The notes below the pieces were generated by a model. The model did not search any database and was not told where the DNA came from. It worked only from the letters and a program-made list of their open reading frames with translations. Below, one piece after another: positions 166 through 45,341 of a DNA stretch of 64,000 bases (its first letter is position 1; each line of letters opens with the position of its first letter). The position numbers and the translations under genes are program-made. This stretch comes from Planctomycetota bacterium. GTDB taxonomy: Bacteria; Planctomycetota; Phycisphaerae; UBA1845. The stretch spans positions 1 through 64,000 of the forward strand of contig JAUWWQ010000011.1 of NCBI GenBank assembly GCA_030616775.1, given 5' to 3'.

Positions 166-3100
166 TTACGGGCATCCGTCCGGTCCGGGCCAGCCAGTTG
201 CCGGAGGCGTCTGCGCCGGCGGATAGGCGAACCCGCGGAACGCATCGAGCTCAAACGTACAGTCTGAAATGTTCACCAGCCCGTCCGGCAAATTGGGCTC
301 GATGTCCGCCCTGGACTTTAGCACCGCGCCCACCAAGTTCCTGAACTTGTCAAAGCACGCAGTGACATCCGTGGCCATGTTCACGACTCCCTCAGGCGGG
401 CTGCACGGAATGACCGCGCAAGTCCCCACCGAATCGCCCCACTTGCTCGTGGTTATCGTCAGCGGGGCCGAGTAGTGATCCTCGTTCTCGAAGTCGCACT
501 GGCACTCGATGGCCTGCACGTCGTAGACGGCGCTGGGGATGATTTCGTCATCGGTCACATGGAGAACTTCCACCGTGCTCCAGTCCATACAGAGCGGGCT
601 ACCCTGCAGGTGAGCGCTCATGAAGTCCGGCCAGCCCGGTTCGTGGGCAATCTTGCCGGAGTTCTCACTGACTTGCTGGGGCTCGCCGACCCAGCAACTG
701 GTGTCGTTAAATCCGTCGAACGGGGCCGGCAGGGTAGTCAGAGTCACCCGCAAGGCCGTCTGATAGCCGGCGTTGCCGGGAACCATGGAGATGTAGCGGA
801 TCTTCTCATAACCGGCCTCTCCGGCCGGCGTCGATGGTGGAGCGAGTTCCGGGCACTCGCACTCGTCGGGGACGCCATTGGTGTTGTCGTCGCTGCTCTG
901 GCCGCAGTCGGGGACATTGCAGTCGCCGCCGAGGGCCTCGCAGTCCAAATCGCATATGTCGGGGATGTCGTTCTCATTGCAGTCGCCGAACGGGTATTCA
1001 TAGGCTCCCATGTCCACGACAGCCTTACCGTCGCTGTCACCGTCCAAAACGCGCGGATTCCCGTCGAGGTCGGTGGCTTCCGTTACGTCCGTGTTGTCGC
1101 CCGTGTCGATGCAGGGTGAACCGGTAGACAGGCGCAGGTCGCCGTAGTCGTCGTTGGCCCCCTCATCGATCTCCGTCGTCGCCGGGTCGTCGCCCCATCC
1201 ATCGCCACCGTCGTAGGGGTCGCGCGCAAAGAGCGGGTCGGCGTCGATGTTGGTCGCCCCCGGGTACCCGCCCTGGACGTCGCTGTAGGTGACGACCGGC
1301 GTGCTGCTATCGTTCCAAATCTCCGGACCACCGGATGCGGCCGAGTCACCCCAGAAAATGCAGTTGGTCACCGTCGGGCTGCTGGTGTAGTAGTTGGACA
1401 TCCCGCCGCCGCCGTCGTCACCGGCCGTATTCCCGCTGAACGTGCAGTTGGTCACCGTCGGGTCGCTGTGGACGGAGTTGGACATGCCCCCGCCGCGGTT
1501 GGTGCCCGAGTTCCCGCTGAAGACGCAGTTGGTCACGGTCGGGCTGCTCTCGTGGTTGCGCATCCCGCCGCCGTAGTCGGCCGAGTTTCCGCTGAAGGTG
1601 CAGTTGGTCACCGTCGGGTCGCTTGCAATGGTTACTTTGCGGTTGAGCATTGCACCGCCGGAGGGTCCGGTGTTCCCAGTGAAGATACAGTTGGTCACTG
1701 CCGGGTCGCTAGCTTCGTAGTTAGCCATCGCCCCACCGCCAAGCGAAGCCGCGTTCCCGGTGAACGTGCAGTTGGTCACCGTCGGGCTGGCAACGTGGTT
1801 GTACATGCCGCCGCCGGCGGCCACATCGATGCTGCCGCCGCCGGCTGTGTTCCCGCTGAACGTGCAGTTGGCTATCGTCGGACTGGTAGAGTGGTTGGAC
1901 ATTGCGCCTCCCGTCCCCGCCGTATTCCCACTGAAAGCGCAGTTCATCACCGTCGCTGTGGCTCCAGTGCTGCAAATCCCGCCGCCATGTTGGTTGGCGT
2001 GGTTTCCGGTGAACGTGCACCCCGTCACCGTCGCGCTGCTACCAGTCGCATTGATCATTCCGCCACCTATGGGGGCTTCGTTACCAATGAACGTGCAGTT
2101 GGTCACCGTGGGGTTGCTGTCGATATAGTTGGACATCCCGCCGCCGCGCTCACTCGAGTTCCCGGCAAACGTGCAGTTGGTCACGGTCGGATGGCTTTGG
2201 GAGTTGTGCATACCGCCACCGTAGTAGGTCCCGGTGTTCCCGCTGAACGTGCAGTTGGCAACCGTCGGGCTGGCGGAGAAGTTGTACATGCCCCCGCCGC
2301 GGAGGTACCCATCGCCAGTGTCGGTGCCGGTACCGCCGGTAATCGTGAAGCCGTCGAGGATTGTGTCCGATCCCTCGCCGCTGTCGCACTTGACCACGCT
2401 GGTGCCCAGGCCCGTGGCGTCGATCGTGGTCACGTCGCGCCCGTCGCTGCTGTGCAAGTCGATCCCCTTGCCCTGAAAGTCGATGGCCTCGTAGTACGTC
2501 CCGGGGGCTACGACGATCTCGTCTCCCTCGTCACACGTTGCATCGATCGCGAACTGGATGCTGCAGTACGGGTCCTGTTCGGTCCCGGAACCCTGTCCGG
2601 GACAAGTGTCATCGTCGACGTAGATCGTCATGGCCCCGGCGTAGGAGTCGAACTGCCGCTCGTAGGCCCCCATGTCGACGATCGGAGGCGTGCCCAAGCC
2701 CCCGTCGGTCACGCCGGCGTCGTCCACAAATCGCGGGTTGCCGTCCAGGTCCGTCGTAACGGCTGCGGCCGCGCCGTTATTCCCCTGGTCCACGCACGGG
2801 GAGTCGCAGCCCAGCCGCAGGTCGCCGCTGATGGCATCGACGAAGAGCGGATCGGCGTCGATGTTCGTTTCCCCGGCGTAGCCGCCCTGGACGTCGCTAT
2901 AGGTGACAGCCGGCGTGCTGGAATAGTTGTAGATCTCGGGATCGGACGGGGCCGTGTCGCCCCAGAAAATGCAGTTGGTCACAGTCGGGTTGCTGGAGGT
3001 GTAGTTGGACATCCCGCCGCCGTAGTTGCCTGCCAAGTTCCCGCTGAAGGTGCAGTTGGTGACCGCCGGGTTGCTGGAGTTGTTGTTGACCATCCCGCCG

Positions 3101-4224
3101 CCGAAGTCGGCCGCCGTGTTGCCGCTGAACGTGCAGTTGGTCACAGTCGGGCTGCTGTAATTGTTGATCATCCCGCCGCCTATAAATCCACTGGCTGAGT
3201 TTCCGACGAACGTGCAGTTGGTCACCGCCGGGCTGGCAAGGTAGTTGTACATCCCGCCGCCAACCATAAGGCCCGTGTTCCCGAGAAAACTGCATCGGGT
3301 CACCGTCGGGCTGCTCTCATCATTGAACATCCCGCCCCCCCCAAAATTAGTGGTCGAGTTTCCGCTGAACGTGCAGTCGGTCACCGTAGGCTCGGCGTTG
3401 TTATAGTTGTACATCCCGCCGCCGTGAGAGGCCGTGTTCCCGCTGAACGTGCAGTCGGTCACCGTCGGCAGGCTGCCTTCATTGATGTTCGCCATCCCGC
3501 CGCCTTGCGAACTGGCGCTGTTTCCGCTGAATGTGCAGTCGGTCACCGTCGGTTCGCCGTTGTTCAGCATCCCGCCCCCGGTACCTGCCGTGTTCCCGGT
3601 GAACACGCAATTGATTACGTGGGCTGTCGCGCCAACACGCACGGACATCCCGCCGCCGAAGGTGGCCGAGTTCCCGGTGAACGTGCAGTTGGCCACCGTC
3701 GGGTCCCCGCTGATGTTGGTCATCCCGCCGCCGTTGTTGTAAGGGGTTGACGCGTTCGCGTTCCCAGCGGTGATGGTGAAGCCGTCGAGGACGCCCGTGT
3801 CGTCGGTCCCGCTGGCGGTGACCACCTGATAGCTGTTGTCCGTGGTACCCGCCGCTCCGATGTCGCCGGAGAGGATCGTCTCGTAGGTCTCGATGTCCCG
3901 TTCATCGGGGTCGCCCGCCCCGCAACCGGCGTAGCCCCCTTCGATCGTCACGCCGTTTTTGAGCTGGTGCGTCGCGGTGCGATCCGTCCCGCTGGTCGGC
4001 TTGTACGTGCCGTCGGCAACGTGAATCGTGTCACCGGAGCCCGCAACGGCCAGGGCTCCTTGCAGGTCAAGGAAGGCCTGACACCATGAGGTGCCGTTGT
4101 GCGGCGTTGTGTCGGCGTTCTCGTCGACGTACCAGGTGAATCCGTGCGCGGCGCCGGCCGTTATCAGCACACAGGCAAAAGACCCAAACAGCGTTCGAGT
4201 TCGATTCAGGCAACACACGATCAA
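166..4224 (-). CDS. Large secreted beta-helix repeat protein with dockerin-like tail
   Basis: This is a 1352-residue exported protein. Residues 1-28 form a signal peptide (basic start, hydrophobic core, AHG-type cleavage site). Most of the rest is two arrays of ~23-residue repeats built around 'TVTNCTFSGN' and 'GGGM.N', matching right-handed parallel beta-helix/Chlamydia-PMP-like repeats. The arrays (roughly residues 110-430 and 610-1010) are separated by a linker that resembles a second copy of the N-terminal 'YVDDD..G.GT..PYCSIQ' module. Near residue 1120 an Asn/Asp-rich segment (CNENDIPDICD, then DNTNGVPDECE) resembles calcium-binding type-3/dockerin-like repeats. The final ~200 residues form the module that ends many planctomycete surface proteins (DGLVNISDCTFELDAFRG). 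The likely location is the cell surface. The substrate or partner is unknown. The long plus-strand ORFs across this gene are mirror images of the repeats. Confidence 0.85.
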   Translation of the reverse strand: MIVCCLNRTRTLFGSFACVLITAGAAHGFTWYVDENADTTPHNGTSWCQAFLDLQGALAVAGSGDTIHVADGTYKPTSGTDRTATHQLKNGVTIEGGYAGCGAGDPDERDIETYETILSGDIGAAGTTDNSYQVVTASGTDDTGVLDGFTITAGNANASTPYNNGGGMTNISGDPTVANCTFTGNSATFGGGMSVRVGATAHVINCVFTGNTAGTGGGMLNNGEPTVTDCTFSGNSASSQGGGMANINEGSLPTVTDCTFSGNTASHGGGMYNYNNAEPTVTDCTFSGNSTTNFGGGGMFNDESSPTVTRCSFLGNTGLMVGGGMYNYLASPAVTNCTFVGNSASGFIGGGMINNYSSPTVTNCTFSGNTAADFGGGMVNNNSSNPAVTNCTFSGNLAGNYGGGMSNYTSSNPTVTNCIFWGDTAPSDPEIYNYSSTPAVTYSDVQGGYAGETNIDADPLFVDAISGDLRLGCDSPCVDQGNNGAAAAVTTDLDGNPRFVDDAGVTDGGLGTPPIVDMGAYERQFDSYAGAMTIYVDDDTCPGQGSGTEQDPYCSIQFAIDATCDEGDEIVVAPGTYYEAIDFQGKGIDLHSSDGRDVTTIDATGLGTSVVKCDSGEGSDTILDGFTITGGTGTDTGDGYLRGGGMYNFSASPTVANCTFSGNTGTYYGGGMHNSQSHPTVTNCTFAGNSSERGGGMSNYIDSNPTVTNCTFIGNEAPIGGGMINATGSSATVTGCTFTGNHANQHGGGICSTGATATVMNCAFSGNTAGTGGAMSNHSTSPTIANCTFSGNTAGGGSIDVAAGGGMYNHVASPTVTNCTFTGNAASLGGGAMANYEASDPAVTNCIFTGNTGPSGGAMLNRKVTIASDPTVTNCTFSGNSADYGGGMRNHESSPTVTNCVFSGNSGTNRGGGMSNSVHSDPTVTNCTFSGNTAGDDGGGGMSNYYTSSPTVTNCIFWGDSAASGGPEIWNDSSTPVVTYSDVQGGYPGATNIDADPLFARDPYDGGDGWGDDPATTEIDEGANDDYGDLRLSTGSPCIDTGDNTDVTEATDLDGNPRVLDGDSDGKAVVDMGAYEYPFGDCNENDIPDICDLDCEALGGDCNVPDCGQSSDDNTNGVPDECECPELAPPSTPAGEAGYEKIRYISMVPGNAGYQTALRVTLTTLPAPFDGFNDTSCWVGEPQQVSENSGKIAHEPGWPDFMSAHLQGSPLCMDWSTVEVLHVTDDEIIPSAVYDVQAIECQCDFENEDHYSAPLTITTSKWGDSVGTCAVIPCSPPEGVVNMATDVTACFDKFRNLVGAVLKSRADIEPNLPDGLVNISDCTFELDAFRGFAYPPAQTPPATGWPGPDGCP

Positions 4225-41362: not shown

Positions 41363-41560
41363 GTGACGTACGTGGGCCCTATGACCATTATCGTTGCGAC
41401 CGTGCTCGGGGTGTGTCTCATTGCCGGGCTGGTCTTCGTCTTCCGGGCCATGTCCGCCCGAACCTCGGCCAGGAAGAAGGTGTGTCACCGGTGCCGCAAC
41501 GTCAACCCGGCACGTGCCGAGTTCTGCGCCCACTGCGGTGAGAGTTTGAATTCATCTTGA
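41363..41560 (+). CDS. Small membrane protein with zinc ribbon
   Basis: The 65-residue product has one transmembrane helix (TIIVATVLGVCLIAGLVFVF) followed by a C-terminal zinc ribbon with two CxxC pairs (CHRCRNVNPARAEFCAHCG). It is read from GTG 41363; an in-frame ATG at 41381 is an alternative. It sits 27 bp before the first of the two SPFH genes and is likely co-transcribed with them, so it may be a small accessory or assembly partner on the cytoplasmic face. Confidence 0.75.
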   Translation: MTYVGPMTIIVATVLGVCLIAGLVFVFRAMSARTSARKKVCHRCRNVNPARAEFCAHCGESLNSS

Positions 41561-41587
41561 GCACGGACTTGCGAAAGGACAAAACCT

Positions 41588-43177
41588 ATGACCAACCACG
41601 GTAGCAACATCGTACGACCTTCGATACCGCCCTACCGCTTACCGGTGTTTCCAGCGGCTTTGGGGAGCATCATATTCCTGCTCTTTCTGATCGGCGCAGT
41701 GTTCTGGTTCGTGATTCGGGTTGAGGTCAACGCCAACGAGATCCTGGTGCTGGTCAACAAGACAGGCAACACGCTGCCGGCGGAGTTGGTGGATCAGTTT
41801 GGGGATCAGGTCATCCTGTATCCTCAGTTGGTGGAGGCGATTGCAGCTTCAACCGGTGAAACGCCCGAGGAGGTCCGCGACGGGTATAAGGGGATTTGCT
41901 ATGATGTGCTCCCCGAGGGGCGATACTTCCCCAATCCCTACTTCTACAAGGCCATCAAGCAATCGGCGACCACCATTCGTCAGAACGAGATCGGCGTATT
42001 GATCCGCAAGTACGGCAATCCGCTTCCGTTCCCCAAGACCGTCGCCACCGAGCCGGATGAGCGTGGTCCGGTTGCGGAGATCCTACGTCCGGGCCGGCAC
42101 AACATCAACCTGCTGGCCTATGAGGTACAGCGGTTCCCGGCCATACAGATTCCGGAAGGTCATGTCGGCGTCGTGACACTGCTTAGTGGTGAGGATCCGA
42201 AGGAGAGGAACACCTACACGGTTGAACCCGGGGAAAAGGGCGTCCAGCGCCGAACGCTCCCGCCCGGTCTGGAATACTACAACCCGTATCTGAAGCGAAT
42301 AGAGACCGTCGACGTGCGGAGCCACAAGTATGACATGTTGGGTGAGGACGCCATCCACTTCCCGTCCAACGACAGTTTTACGATCGCTATTGAAGGTACG
42401 ATCGAATGGGCGATCCGCCCCGACCACGTGGCCGAAGCCACTGTAGCCTACGGGTTTGAGCAGGACATTCTCAGCAAGGTCATCCTGCCGAACGCGCGCA
42501 GCGTCGCCAGGATTCAGGGGTCAAAGCTGCTGGCGCGCGAGTTTATTAGCGGCAAGACCCGCACCGCCTTTCAAGAGCGGCTGCTGTCGGAGCTAAGACG
42601 GGAATGCTGGAAACAGGGGATTGACATCAAATCGGCGTTGGTGCGCGACATCCAGCCACCGGCGGAGATCGCCGCCCTGATCAGCCAGCGTGAACAGGCC
42701 GACCAGGAGATCGAGCGGTCCACGAATCAGATGGAAGAGGCCAAGGCGGAAGCGCAGCTCGTCGAACAGCGTGAGCTGCAGGAGCAGAACAAAGCCATCG
42801 GTGATGGCCGGCGACAGGTCGTCACGGTGACCAAACGAGCGGAGCAGGGCAAGATAGTCGCCGTCACGCACGCCAAACGCGAGCTGGAGGTGGGTAAGCT
42901 CGAACTGGAGGCGGCTGAGAAGCTGGCGTCGGCCATCCGCTCTCGTGGTGAAGCCGAGGCCAACGTCGTCCTTTATGAGTATCAGGCCCGGGCGGAGCCC
43001 TTGGCGAGGGCCGTGCAAGCCTTCGGCGACGGGGCCACATACGCACAGCAGTTCTTCCTTAGGCGTGTGGCGCCTTCGATCAGTACGATCCTGTCCAACA
43101 CCGACGGGCCTTTTGCGGAGATCTTCAAGCAGTTTCAGACATTTGGTGAGACATCCTCACAAGGAGGTGGCCGATGA
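41588..43177 (+). CDS. SPFH/band-7 membrane protein 1 with repeated N-terminal modules
   Basis: The 529-residue protein has one N-terminal transmembrane helix (SIIFLLFLIGAVFWFVIRV), then ~200 residues of repeated strands: NEILVLVNKTGNTLP, NEIGVLIRKYGNPLPF and GHVGVVTLLSGEDP, each followed by 'GPVAEILRPGRHNIN' or 'GVQRRTLPPGLEYYNP'-like segments. The SPFH core (about residues 255-385) includes TIAIEGTIEWAIRPDHV, ILPNARSVARIQGSKLLAREFI and GIDIKSALVRDIQPPAEI. A long charged coiled coil (AEAQLVEQRELQEQNKAI...) follows. Such proteins form ring- or cage-like oligomers on membranes. The next gene overlaps by 4 bp (ATGA). Confidence 0.88.
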   Translation: MTNHGSNIVRPSIPPYRLPVFPAALGSIIFLLFLIGAVFWFVIRVEVNANEILVLVNKTGNTLPAELVDQFGDQVILYPQLVEAIAASTGETPEEVRDGYKGICYDVLPEGRYFPNPYFYKAIKQSATTIRQNEIGVLIRKYGNPLPFPKTVATEPDERGPVAEILRPGRHNINLLAYEVQRFPAIQIPEGHVGVVTLLSGEDPKERNTYTVEPGEKGVQRRTLPPGLEYYNPYLKRIETVDVRSHKYDMLGEDAIHFPSNDSFTIAIEGTIEWAIRPDHVAEATVAYGFEQDILSKVILPNARSVARIQGSKLLAREFISGKTRTAFQERLLSELRRECWKQGIDIKSALVRDIQPPAEIAALISQREQADQEIERSTNQMEEAKAEAQLVEQRELQEQNKAIGDGRRQVVTVTKRAEQGKIVAVTHAKRELEVGKLELEAAEKLASAIRSRGEAEANVVLYEYQARAEPLARAVQAFGDGATYAQQFFLRRVAPSISTILSNTDGPFAEIFKQFQTFGETSSQGGGR

Positions 43178-44910
43178 TGCGGCAACTGGTCATTGGAGTG
43201 GTGGGACTGGTTCTGGTCGCGATTGCGGTAATGGGGGCACTGGCCTGGGTTACCTTCCGCGTCTATGTGCCGGAGGATCGGTGCGCCGTGCTCATTCGCA
43301 AGATGGGCAAGCCGTTGCCGCCGGGCCAGCTTGTTGCCACCGAGCCGGGTCAACGCGGGATTCAGGAAGAGGTTCTTGGTCCGGGACGCTACTTCTATAA
43401 TCCCATCGTGTGGGATAATGAAATCAAGCCCCTGACCACAATTCCAGCCGGGAATCCGAGCACCTGGGAGTGGGTCCATTCGCTCAATGACCGACAGCGC
43501 GACGCGCTTCGGGCAGGAACCTTCGCGTTCAAGGGCGAGTTCCCACAGTTAGGTGTCGTCACGCGGAAGGTGGGCAAGAAGCCCGCCCCCGGACAGGTGG
43601 TCGTGAAGCGCGATTCGGGCATCAAAGGGATCCTCGAAGAGGTGCTCACGCCTGGTATCTACAAGATCAATCCGTATGTGTACGACGTCCAGCTTCACCC
43701 GGCCGTGGTCATCCCGGCCGGGTTTGTCGGCGTGGTAACCAACCTCTTTGGTGACCAACCCGAAGTGTCTGTGACAGAAGCATTGCCGGAGCTGGGCGAT
43801 GAACAGGCGGAAACGCCCGGCGAAACCGCGGACACTGAGTTTACAAGTTACGTGCGGCCCCTGGCCAAATTCGGAGAACGCGGAACGCTGCGCGATGTCC
43901 TGCAGCCCGGTGTCTATTTTATCAATCCGAAACTCCAGAAGGTCACCCTGCTGGAAATCGGCTTCAATGAATACTCACAGGTAAAGCTCACCGAATCCGA
44001 GAACCTTCGTATTTCTTTCCCCTCGGATACCGGTTATCTCATTCGTGTCGGTGTTACGGTCATCTGGGGGATCCATCCGAAGCACGCAGCCGAGATCATC
44101 AACGAGTTCGGCAACATCGACAGCGTGCTTGATAAGGTAATCGCACCGCAGCTTCGCTCGATCTGTCGCAACATCGGCTCGACCTATGCAGCCCGGGATT
44201 TCATCCAGGGCGAGAAGCGTGAGATGTTCCAACGGGCTTTGACTGCGGAGCTCCAACGGATCTGCCGGGCGAAGAATCTCGAGGTGCTGCTTGCACTGAT
44301 ACGCGAGATTGAGGTGCATGCCCCGACGGCCGGTGCCGTCGATGGGCAAGCGACCACGGACCTCAAACGAACCATCCAGCAAAGCTTCATCGCCATCGAA
44401 AGTCGGCTTGCCATGGTCAAACAGCGTGAAGCCGCGGCCGTAAAGGCCAAGCTTGAAGAGGAAAAAAAGAAGGTCGACATTGCCCGGGAAACCATCAAGG
44501 GCGATACACGCGTGATGGTGGCCAACATCCTGGCCGAAGGTGACAAACGCGCCGCCGAGATCGATGCTCAGGGTCAGCTCGAGGTGGCCACCATCCAACA
44601 GGAGGTTGCCCAACTGGACGCCCAGCGCATTGAGATCCTCGGTCAGGCACGGGCCGACGTCGTGAAGATGAAAAACGAAAGCGAGGCCAAGGGCTACGAA
44701 ATGCTGATCAATGCCTTTGGCAGCGGGCACGCCTACAACCTCTACACCTTCGCCGAGAACTTCCAGCCCGAGTCGATCCGCTTGTTCTTTGCCGGCGACG
44801 GAACGTTCTGGACCGATCTGTCACGGTTCGAACAACTCGGGGCAGCCAAGCTGCTCCGCCCGACGGCGGAACCGACGTCGCCAGGGTCGACTTCAGCGGA
44901 GCGTGAATAG
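43174..44910 (+). CDS. SPFH/band-7 membrane protein 2, larger paralogue
   Basis: The 578-residue protein shares the plan of its upstream neighbour: an N-terminal membrane helix (LVIGVVGLVLVAIAVMGALAWV), three repeats of a ~70-residue module (RCAVLIRKMGKPLPPGQLVA...EEVLGPGRYFYNP; GVVTRKVGKKPAPGQVV...EEVLTPGIYKINP; FGERGTLRDVLQPGVYFINP), the SPFH domain (YLIRVGVTVIWGIHPKHAAEI; ICRNIGSTYAARDFI), and a coiled-coil C-terminus (AKLEEEKKKVDIARE). It also carries an EGDKRAAEIDAQGQLEVATI stretch typical of flotillin-like tails. A ribosome-binding site (AAGGAGG) lies in the end of gene 1. The two are expected to co-assemble. Confidence 0.88.
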   Translation: MMRQLVIGVVGLVLVAIAVMGALAWVTFRVYVPEDRCAVLIRKMGKPLPPGQLVATEPGQRGIQEEVLGPGRYFYNPIVWDNEIKPLTTIPAGNPSTWEWVHSLNDRQRDALRAGTFAFKGEFPQLGVVTRKVGKKPAPGQVVVKRDSGIKGILEEVLTPGIYKINPYVYDVQLHPAVVIPAGFVGVVTNLFGDQPEVSVTEALPELGDEQAETPGETADTEFTSYVRPLAKFGERGTLRDVLQPGVYFINPKLQKVTLLEIGFNEYSQVKLTESENLRISFPSDTGYLIRVGVTVIWGIHPKHAAEIINEFGNIDSVLDKVIAPQLRSICRNIGSTYAARDFIQGEKREMFQRALTAELQRICRAKNLEVLLALIREIEVHAPTAGAVDGQATTDLKRTIQQSFIAIESRLAMVKQREAAAVKAKLEEEKKKVDIARETIKGDTRVMVANILAEGDKRAAEIDAQGQLEVATIQQEVAQLDAQRIEILGQARADVVKMKNESEAKGYEMLINAFGSGHAYNLYTFAENFQPESIRLFFAGDGTFWTDLSRFEQLGAAKLLRPTAEPTSPGSTSAERE

Positions 44911-44945: not shown

Positions 44946-45341
44946 CCGATCACGAAACAGGTAAGGCCGGTTTTACCACGGCCACGGGAAGGTGGGCCCG
45001 GACGCAAGCCCGCAGACCAACGGCAGATGCTCAACGGCATCATGTGAATCTTGCGGACGGGTGCCCCTTGGCGGGATGTGCCGGAACGATTCGGGCCCTG
45101 GCAGACGGTCTACCACTATTTCAACGAGTGGCGTAAGCAGGGCGTCTACGATCGGATCATCGAGGCGCTGCAAATTCTGCTGGACGCAAACGATCAGATC
45201 GACTGGGATCTGTGGTGTGTCGACGGTAGTTCGATTCGTACCAGTCGGGCTGCTACCGGCGCGATCGCTACCTTTCTCGGGATGCACCCTTTCAAGTCGG
45301 TCCCGCGCCCCCGATATCCGGGGGACACAGAAGCGCCCTGA
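44946..45341 (+). pseudogene. Broken IS5-family transposase
   Basis: In one frame the sequence reads LPRPREGGPGRKPADQRQML then NGIM-stop-ILRTGAPWRDVPERFGPWQTVYHYFNEWRKQG and LWCVDGSSIRTSRAATGA, which follow IS5-type transposases (DDE_Tnp_1 with the DUF4096 N-domain). A TGA (45045-45047) stands where the family has Trp, and after RAATGA the protein continues into unrelated residues. No terminal inverted repeats were identified. The element is dead. Confidence 0.8.

What the first reader, a model, noticed from the sequence alone, without database searches (positions are those of the whole stretch)
41363..44910. Three-gene unit: zinc-ribbon membrane protein plus two coupled SPFH proteins with repeated modules
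Seen: a 65-aa TM/zinc-ribbon protein, then two SPFH proteins overlapping by ATGA. Each SPFH protein carries before the SPFH domain several copies of a ~60-70-residue module ('VLIRK.G.PLP.....G.....L.PG.Y..NP'). The extra modules are not part of ordinary flotillin or prohibitin. Known: SPFH proteins form membrane cages (HflK/C, prohibitin, flotillin). The eukaryotic major vault protein likewise combines N-terminal repeat domains with an SPFH-like shoulder and a helical cap. Inferred: the pair forms a hetero-oligomeric envelope cage, with the zinc ribbon as accessory.
Basis: partly seen in the sequence, partly recalled or inferred. Interest (0 to 1): 0.62.

Follow-up and report, generated by a model that had tools for sequence, protein, structure and literature searches.

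The report
Paired membrane cage proteins, vault-like repeats
Planctomycete bacteria carry a pair of membrane-anchored ring-forming (SPFH) proteins whose walls are lengthened by three stacked copies of one small beta-sheet module, an arrangement otherwise seen in solved structures only in the vault particle of eukaryotes, so they offer a bacterial test of what tall protein cages of this kind do.

Summary
Window 41363-44910 carries a 65-aa membrane/zinc-ribbon gene and two SPFH (Band_7) genes overlapping by ATGA. Each SPFH protein has a membrane helix, three homologous ~60-residue modules, an SPFH core and a coiled coil. The third module is the N-terminal (SPFH1) part of Band_7 itself, so two copies are extra. 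All six modules are mutually homologous (hhalign 97-99.7%; reversed controls under 4%), each closest to its positional counterpart in the partner: triplication preceded gene duplication. All 66 proteins from 33 pair loci have them; the paralogs form two clades and always lie side by side. The zinc-ribbon gene is intact in 35 of 38 loci of the class, absent in 20 of 20 distant loci. In AlphaFold models the modules plus core align collinearly to major vault protein from residue 323 (4.2-4.3 A); ordinary SPFH proteins align only from module three. Sequence profiles show no link to vault protein: shared architecture, not shown homology. Best reading: an obligate hetero-oligomeric, inner-membrane-anchored, periplasm-facing tall cage; ring, stoichiometry and function are inferred. 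New variant of a known kind.

The parts
41363..41560 (+). ZR: 65-aa protein, one TM helix (about 41381-41443) and a C-terminal CxxC-CxxC zinc ribbon (about 41483-41536); GTG start
   Evidence: cysteines invariant in 12 aligned orthologs
41588..43177 (+). S1: first SPFH protein, 529 aa
41645..41716 (+). S1 N-terminal transmembrane helix (residues 20-43)
   Evidence: helix; hydropathy and charge bias over 50 proteins
41717..41968 (+). S1 module M1 (residues 44-127), with a lineage-specific helical insert at about residues 63-100
41969..42145 (+). S1 module M2 (residues 128-186)
42146..42319 (+). S1 module M3 (residues 187-244) = SPFH1 subdomain, N-terminal part of Band_7
42320..42661 (+). S1 SPFH2 core (residues 245-358)
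42662..43027 (+). S1 long helical/coiled-coil region (residues 359-480)
43174..44910 (+). S2: second SPFH protein, 578 aa, ATGA overlap with S1
43177..43257 (+). S2 N-terminal transmembrane helix (residues 2-28)
43258..43449 (+). S2 module M1 (residues 29-92)
43534..43707 (+). S2 module M2 (residues 121-178)
43708..43968 (+). S2 module M3 (residues 179-265) = SPFH1 subdomain, with a low-confidence insert at about residues 199-225
43969..44325 (+). S2 SPFH2 core (residues 266-384)
44350..44718 (+). S2 long helical/coiled-coil region (residues 393-515)

Best explanation
S1 and S2 are obligate partner subunits of one hetero-oligomeric, inner-membrane-anchored SPFH cage. Each subunit enters the membrane with an N-terminal helix (N terminus in the cytoplasm). 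It then stacks three SPFH1-type beta modules outward as a wall, continues with the SPFH2 core and closes with a coiled-coil roof, as HflK/HflC and prohibitin do. The two extra modules lift the SPFH2 ring and roof further from the membrane, giving a taller chamber built like the upper wall of the vault. The likely job is that of other SPFH cages: fencing off a membrane patch and holding membrane or periplasmic client proteins, perhaps as a quality-control or protease-restricting compartment. In one order and a related family the small ZR protein, whose zinc ribbon is predicted to face the cytoplasm, would sit in or under the ring as a cytoplasmic docking or regulatory piece. Shown: gene order, repeats, paralog split, conservation. 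Predicted: monomer folds, topology. Inferred: ring, stoichiometry, chamber height, function, role of ZR.
For: Pair adjacent, same strand, S1 first, in all 33 loci read in full and in all 33 other genomes of the class sample with a strong S1 match, each with an S2 match next to it (some genomes overlap the first set). S1 and S2 form two clades (98/94 support, 100% of bootstrap trees) with correlated distances (r 0.95). Three modules in every protein, as conserved as the SPFH core (41-49% versus 43-45% mean pairwise identity). Models with modules mostly at pLDDT 80-95. Only major vault protein covers modules 1-2 in the PDB comparison: 9r86 Z 11.5, 4.3 A over 285 residues for S1; 7pkz Z 10.2, 4.2 A over 229 for S2; both start at vault residue about 323. 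N-side more positive than C-side of the TM in 40 of 50 proteins. ZR upstream in 35 of 38 class loci.
Against: No complex, ring or function was tested. pTM is only 0.50-0.53 and inter-module error was not reported. AlphaFold was trained on vault structures. Mirror-tree correlation largely reflects species phylogeny. Periplasmic placement rests on charge bias alone. Three of 12 aligned ZR orthologs do not show the expected charge bias. ZR is not needed where the pair occurs outside the class.
Confidence: 0.65

Rival explanations
1. It is an HflK/HflC-type FtsH modulator in which the N-terminal modules are ornaments: the cage and function are the standard ones.
For: Tandem pair, N-terminal TM, SPFH core and coiled coil as in HflK/C; the S1 and S2 models align to HflK/C chains with Z 12-14. 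The genome has an FtsH-type peptidase.
Against: The same genome has a separate SPFH cluster with HflC/HflK-like proteins (L072); S1/S2 are separated from it by a very long branch. The S1 match to the hflC equivalog model is E 0.42, 9.4 bits against a cutoff of 134. Modules are as conserved as the core, so not ornaments. The FtsH-type peptidase lies on another contig.
Confidence: 0.2
2. The modules make a trans-envelope scaffold or tether rather than a closed chamber: an extended wall reaching toward cell wall or outer membrane.
For: Repeated stacked modules directly after the TM; module number varies, with a five-module relative (L084).
Against: In known SPFH cages the modules next to the membrane form a ring closed by the coiled coil, and the coiled coil is retained here. 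No peptidoglycan- or outer-membrane-binding domain was found by Pfam.
Confidence: 0.1
3. It is a true bacterial relative of the vault: the eukaryotic major vault protein descends from such a multi-module SPFH protein.
For: Collinear structural match of three modules plus core to vault residues from about 323 on, in both paralogs; three-stranded antiparallel modules as in vault repeats R1-R9 (PMC13347060); relative with more modules.
Against: No sequence-level signal: no Vault or shoulder Pfam hit, profile search of PDB finds prohibitin and stomatin but not vault protein, hhalign probability at most 1%. SPFH1 duplication could have happened twice independently.
Confidence: 0.1

Closest known systems
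Major vault protein (eukaryotic vault)
   Same: Array of three-stranded beta modules leading into an SPFH-like shoulder and then a long helix; three modules plus core superpose on vault residues from about 323.
   Different: Three modules, not nine; N-terminal TM anchor; two paralogs instead of one; no detectable sequence similarity; vault is a cytosolic closed 78-mer.
HflK/HflC (E. coli)
   Same: Two paralogous SPFH proteins in one operon, N-terminal TM, SPFH1-SPFH2 core, coiled coil.
   Different: HflK/C have one SPFH1 module; here three. Does not reach the hflC family cutoff. The host genome has its own separate HflK/C-like cluster.
Prohibitin 1/2 complex
   Same: Best core match (8rrh_B Z 16.9 for S1; 16.1 for S2); hetero-oligomer; best sequence-profile match in PDB (E 3.5e-5).
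   Different: Aligns only from module 3 on (S1 residue 183-185 onward); no extra modules.
Flotillin and SPFH-NfeD pairs (QmcA-YbbJ)
   Same: SPFH cage fold; small membrane partner gene in the operon.
   Different: The partner here is a TM/zinc-ribbon protein, not NfeD, by Pfam; flotillin aligns only from module 3.
Prokaryotic SPFH11a/b subfamily (PMC2636767, 2009)
   Same: Two SPFH paralogs always adjacent in one operon.
   Different: Defined on about 7 genomes, no member described, SPFH11b lacks the coiled coil; whether S1/S2 belong to it could not be tested.

Membership tests
SPFH superfamily | Band_7/SPFH domain by sequence | tested here: met
   Pfam E 1.5e-29 and 5.6e-19, above cutoff
SPFH superfamily | N-terminal membrane anchor, SPFH1-SPFH2 core, coiled coil | tested here: met
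   Models and hydropathy; predictions only
SPFH superfamily | Oligomeric ring or dome on a membrane | not testable with these tools
   No complex prediction available
Major vault protein | Array of three-stranded beta repeats followed by SPFH-like shoulder | tested here: met
   VIA-align: S1 residues 43-406 to vault 322-695, 4.3 A over 285; S2 29-381 to 323-645, 4.2 A over 229
Major vault protein | Vault-family sequence signature | tested here: not met
   No Vault Pfam hit at E up to 1; absent from profile hits in PDB; hhalign probability at most 1%, reversed controls 0.1-0.2%
Major vault protein | Nine repeats, no membrane anchor | tested here: not met
   Three modules and a TM helix in the pair proteins
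Major vault protein | 78-mer closed particle joined at N termini | not testable with these tools
   Needs experiment
HflK/HflC | HflC or HflK family model above cutoff | tested here: not met
   hflC TIGR01932 9.4 bits against cutoff 134.4 for S1; no HflK or HflC hit for S2
HflK/HflC | Adjacent paralogous pair with N-terminal TM | tested here: met
HflK/HflC | Binding and regulation of FtsH | not testable with these tools
   FtsH-type peptidase on another contig; interaction needs experiment
SPFH-NfeD operons | NfeD partner gene in the operon | tested here: not met
   The operon's small membrane gene matches zinc-ribbon families and no NfeD at E up to 1

The most novel reading that the evidence does not exclude
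Planctomycetes build a membrane-anchored bacterial half-vault: a two-subunit cage with a multi-module wall. The vault wall and this wall share descent from an SPFH1-duplicated bacterial ancestor, so the vault began as a membrane-bound envelope cage.
Probability: 0.1. Interest if true: 0.88.

Novelty: new variant of a known kind. Interest (0 to 1): 0.63.

Why it matters
A 2026 vault paper (PMC13100048) states that the repeat domains before the SPFH domain are unique to the vault and that all other SPFH cages are half cages with membrane motifs upstream. These proteins combine both: a membrane anchor and a vault-like module array. They show a middle architecture, built by triplication of the SPFH1 subdomain before the two paralogs split, in a bacterial phylum with cultured members. 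That makes two open questions testable: what wall height does for an SPFH cage, and whether the vault arose from a membrane-bound cage or by independent duplication. They also give Planctomycetota, known for unusual envelopes, a widespread but uncharacterised envelope machine.

Tried and rejected
Vault homology by sequence: Pfam scan, profile search of PDB and hhalign with human and rat vault residues 330-605 against reversed controls gave nothing. Vault Pfam family in 392 phylum genomes: none, but the control genomes were silent too, so inconclusive. Plasmid search with S2: no match. Conserved neighbours: besides ZR no gene family recurs widely next to the pair; cluster 1 is reverse-strand shadow ORFs of the pair. 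Ser/Thr kinases flank it in three families, but kinases are common in this phylum and this was not tested statistically. My first scan for ZR used a strict CxxC pattern; a relaxed look rescued five class loci, and the relaxed scan still found none in the 20 distant loci.

Full report
What is there. Pfam finds Band_7 in both SPFH proteins and nothing significant in front of it; ZR scores just under cutoff for zinc-ribbon families. The window sits on contig C22 of a 4.4-Mb genome; the nearest named relatives are Phycisphaerae/Phycisphaerales MAGs.

The repeats. Six modules (three in each protein) were cut from an alignment of 50 proteins (25 loci, both paralogs) and compared as profiles. All 15 pairs are homologous (probability 96.8-99.7%, E 2e-10 to 7e-27); the same comparisons with one side reversed gave at most 3.9%. 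Each module is closest to the module in the same place of the partner protein (M1-M1 99.7, M2-M2 99.7, M3-M3 99.6), so the module was triplicated before the gene was duplicated. An HMM of the module finds three copies in all 66 proteins of the 33 pair loci; in a few the third is split by an insert. Twelve columns are invariant over the 50 proteins, nine of them in or at the edges of the modules. Modules are as conserved as the SPFH core, 41-49% against 43-45% mean pairwise identity. They are not loose linkers. M3 coincides with the start of Band_7 (residue 187 in S1, profile position 2), so it is the ordinary SPFH1 subdomain and M1 and M2 are the extra copies.

Gene order. The S1-S2 pair, same strand and S1 first, is present in all 33 loci read in full (13 close ones, L009-L021; 20 from distant families, L052-L071), commonly with the 4-base overlap. 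A phylum sample gave 58 of 246 genomes with a match at 1e-5, not all of which are the pair; a class sample gave 49 of 198 at 1e-10, of which 33 besides the window have a strong S1, and each of these has an S2 match beside it. S1 and S2 form two clades (98/94; all 200 bootstrap trees), and their distance matrices correlate at 0.95, as expected for partners kept together, though shared species history alone gives much of that. ZR: with the overlapping sets merged, 35 of 38 class loci have an intact TM/zinc-ribbon gene just upstream of S1, one (L097) has it frame-disrupted and two (L016, the same contig as L098; and L119) lack it. None of the 20 distant loci has one within 2 kb on either side. 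So the trio is conserved within the order and one more family of the class, and the pair across the phylum.

Structure. Two AlphaFold2 jobs were run on alignments of window and close-relative proteins. S1: mean pLDDT 78, pTM 0.53, modules mostly 80-95. S2: mean pLDDT 74, pTM 0.50. Each module is a small sheet of three main strands, in line with the description of vault repeats R1-R9 as antiparallel three-stranded sheets (PMC13347060). In the PDB comparison the SPFH core matches prohibitin, Erlin, stomatin, HflK/C and flotillin, essentially from residue 183 of S1 or 177 of S2 onward. The only listed entries that cover modules 1 and 2 in sequence order are major vault protein: S1 residues 43-406 on 322-695 of 9r86 (Z 11.5, 4.3 A, 285 residues), S2 29-381 on 323-645 of 7pkz (Z 10.2, 4.2 A, 229 residues). 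From PMC13347060, R6 includes residues about 298-305, R8 includes 383 and R9 461-492, so the match begins near the start of R7 and runs R7-R8-R9-shoulder (boundary of R7 inferred). Caveats: AlphaFold was trained on vault structures; inter-module error was not given; Z of 10-11 is moderate for chains of this size, and other vault entries give large rmsd because the hinged coiled coil is included.

Vault or not. By sequence there is no link: no Vault Pfam hit, prohibitin and stomatin but no vault protein in the profile search of PDB, hhalign probability at most 1%. Three modules instead of nine, a membrane anchor, and two paralogs also differ. It is therefore like the vault wall in build, not shown to be a member of that family. 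[quoted passage not shown] the proteins here carry both features. I found no description of this architecture in the held library, which is open-access only. From memory, unverified, vault-protein-like sequences have been reported in a few bacteria; that lead could not be followed.

Wider family. Other planctomycete proteins share the array: single genes with three modules (L077-L083, L088, L089), a protein with five modules (L084, 681 aa from its first listed start) and one with at least four (L085). Those whose sequences were printed keep an N-terminal hydrophobic helix. Module number is thus variable, as expected if the array sets wall height.

How it probably works. The charge bias around the membrane helix (mean +2.3 before, +0.06 after; N side higher in 40 of 50, lower in 3) puts the modules and core outside the cytoplasm, as in HflK/C. 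ZR shows the opposite bias in 9 of 12 orthologs, so its ribbon should face the cytoplasm. Solved SPFH complexes of this layout form rings or domes, and S1 and S2 are always paired as HflK-HflC, prohibitin 1-2 and flotillin 1-2 are, so the most likely object is an S1/S2 dome on the inner membrane whose two extra module layers raise its roof (inference). What it encloses is unknown; sequestration of membrane proteins or restriction of a protease are the standing ideas for the family. The genome has its own HflK/C-like SPFH cluster (L072) and an FtsH-type peptidase elsewhere, so S1/S2 are probably not its substitute for HflK/C.

Limits. Only Planctomycetota could be sampled by genome, so presence elsewhere is untested. 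Ring, partners and function rest on analogy. The outgroup branches in the tree are long; only the S1/S2 split is used from it.

Noticed in passing
L084:2340-4385 (-): A 681-aa relative with five SPFH1-type modules before the SPFH core and an N-terminal TM: more modules than any pair protein.
   Followed up: partly
L077-L083, L088, L089: A third, apparently single-gene family of three-module SPFH proteins, with about 30% identity to S2 over most of its length, in other planctomycete families.
   Followed up: partly
L085:2508-4916 (-): An SPFH protein with at least four modules and an odd, possibly frame-shifted stretch between its second and third detected modules.
   Followed up: no
L052:11074-12249, L054:5139-6158, L056:10555-11703: Ser/Thr protein kinase genes lie directly beside the SPFH pair in three genomes of different families.
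   Followed up: no
L072:3238-7651 (G000 C21): Three further SPFH genes in tandem in the same genome: a 706-aa SPFH protein with an N-terminal membrane part, then HflC- and HflK-like proteins, followed by what look like ABC transporter genes.
   Followed up: partly
L074:2737-4518 (G000 C10): A 593-aa Band_7 protein that begins with two zinc ribbons: a second, independent link of zinc ribbon and SPFH in this genome.
   Followed up: no
window 41774-41890: Helical insert inside S1 module 1 (residues about 63-100), present in the close clade and absent from the distant S1 proteins by module length.
   Followed up: partly
L097, about 1450-1671: Zinc-ribbon gene keeps its membrane helix but loses the ribbon in frame; the relative L100 has it intact: decay or a sequencing error.
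   Followed up: no
window 45051-45341: Fragment resembling an IS5-type transposase just downstream of the operon, before the electron-transfer flavoprotein genes.
   Followed up: no
window 166-4224 (-): A 1352-aa protein made of repeats of the 'PTVTNCTFSGN' type, likely a beta-helix surface protein.
   Followed up: no
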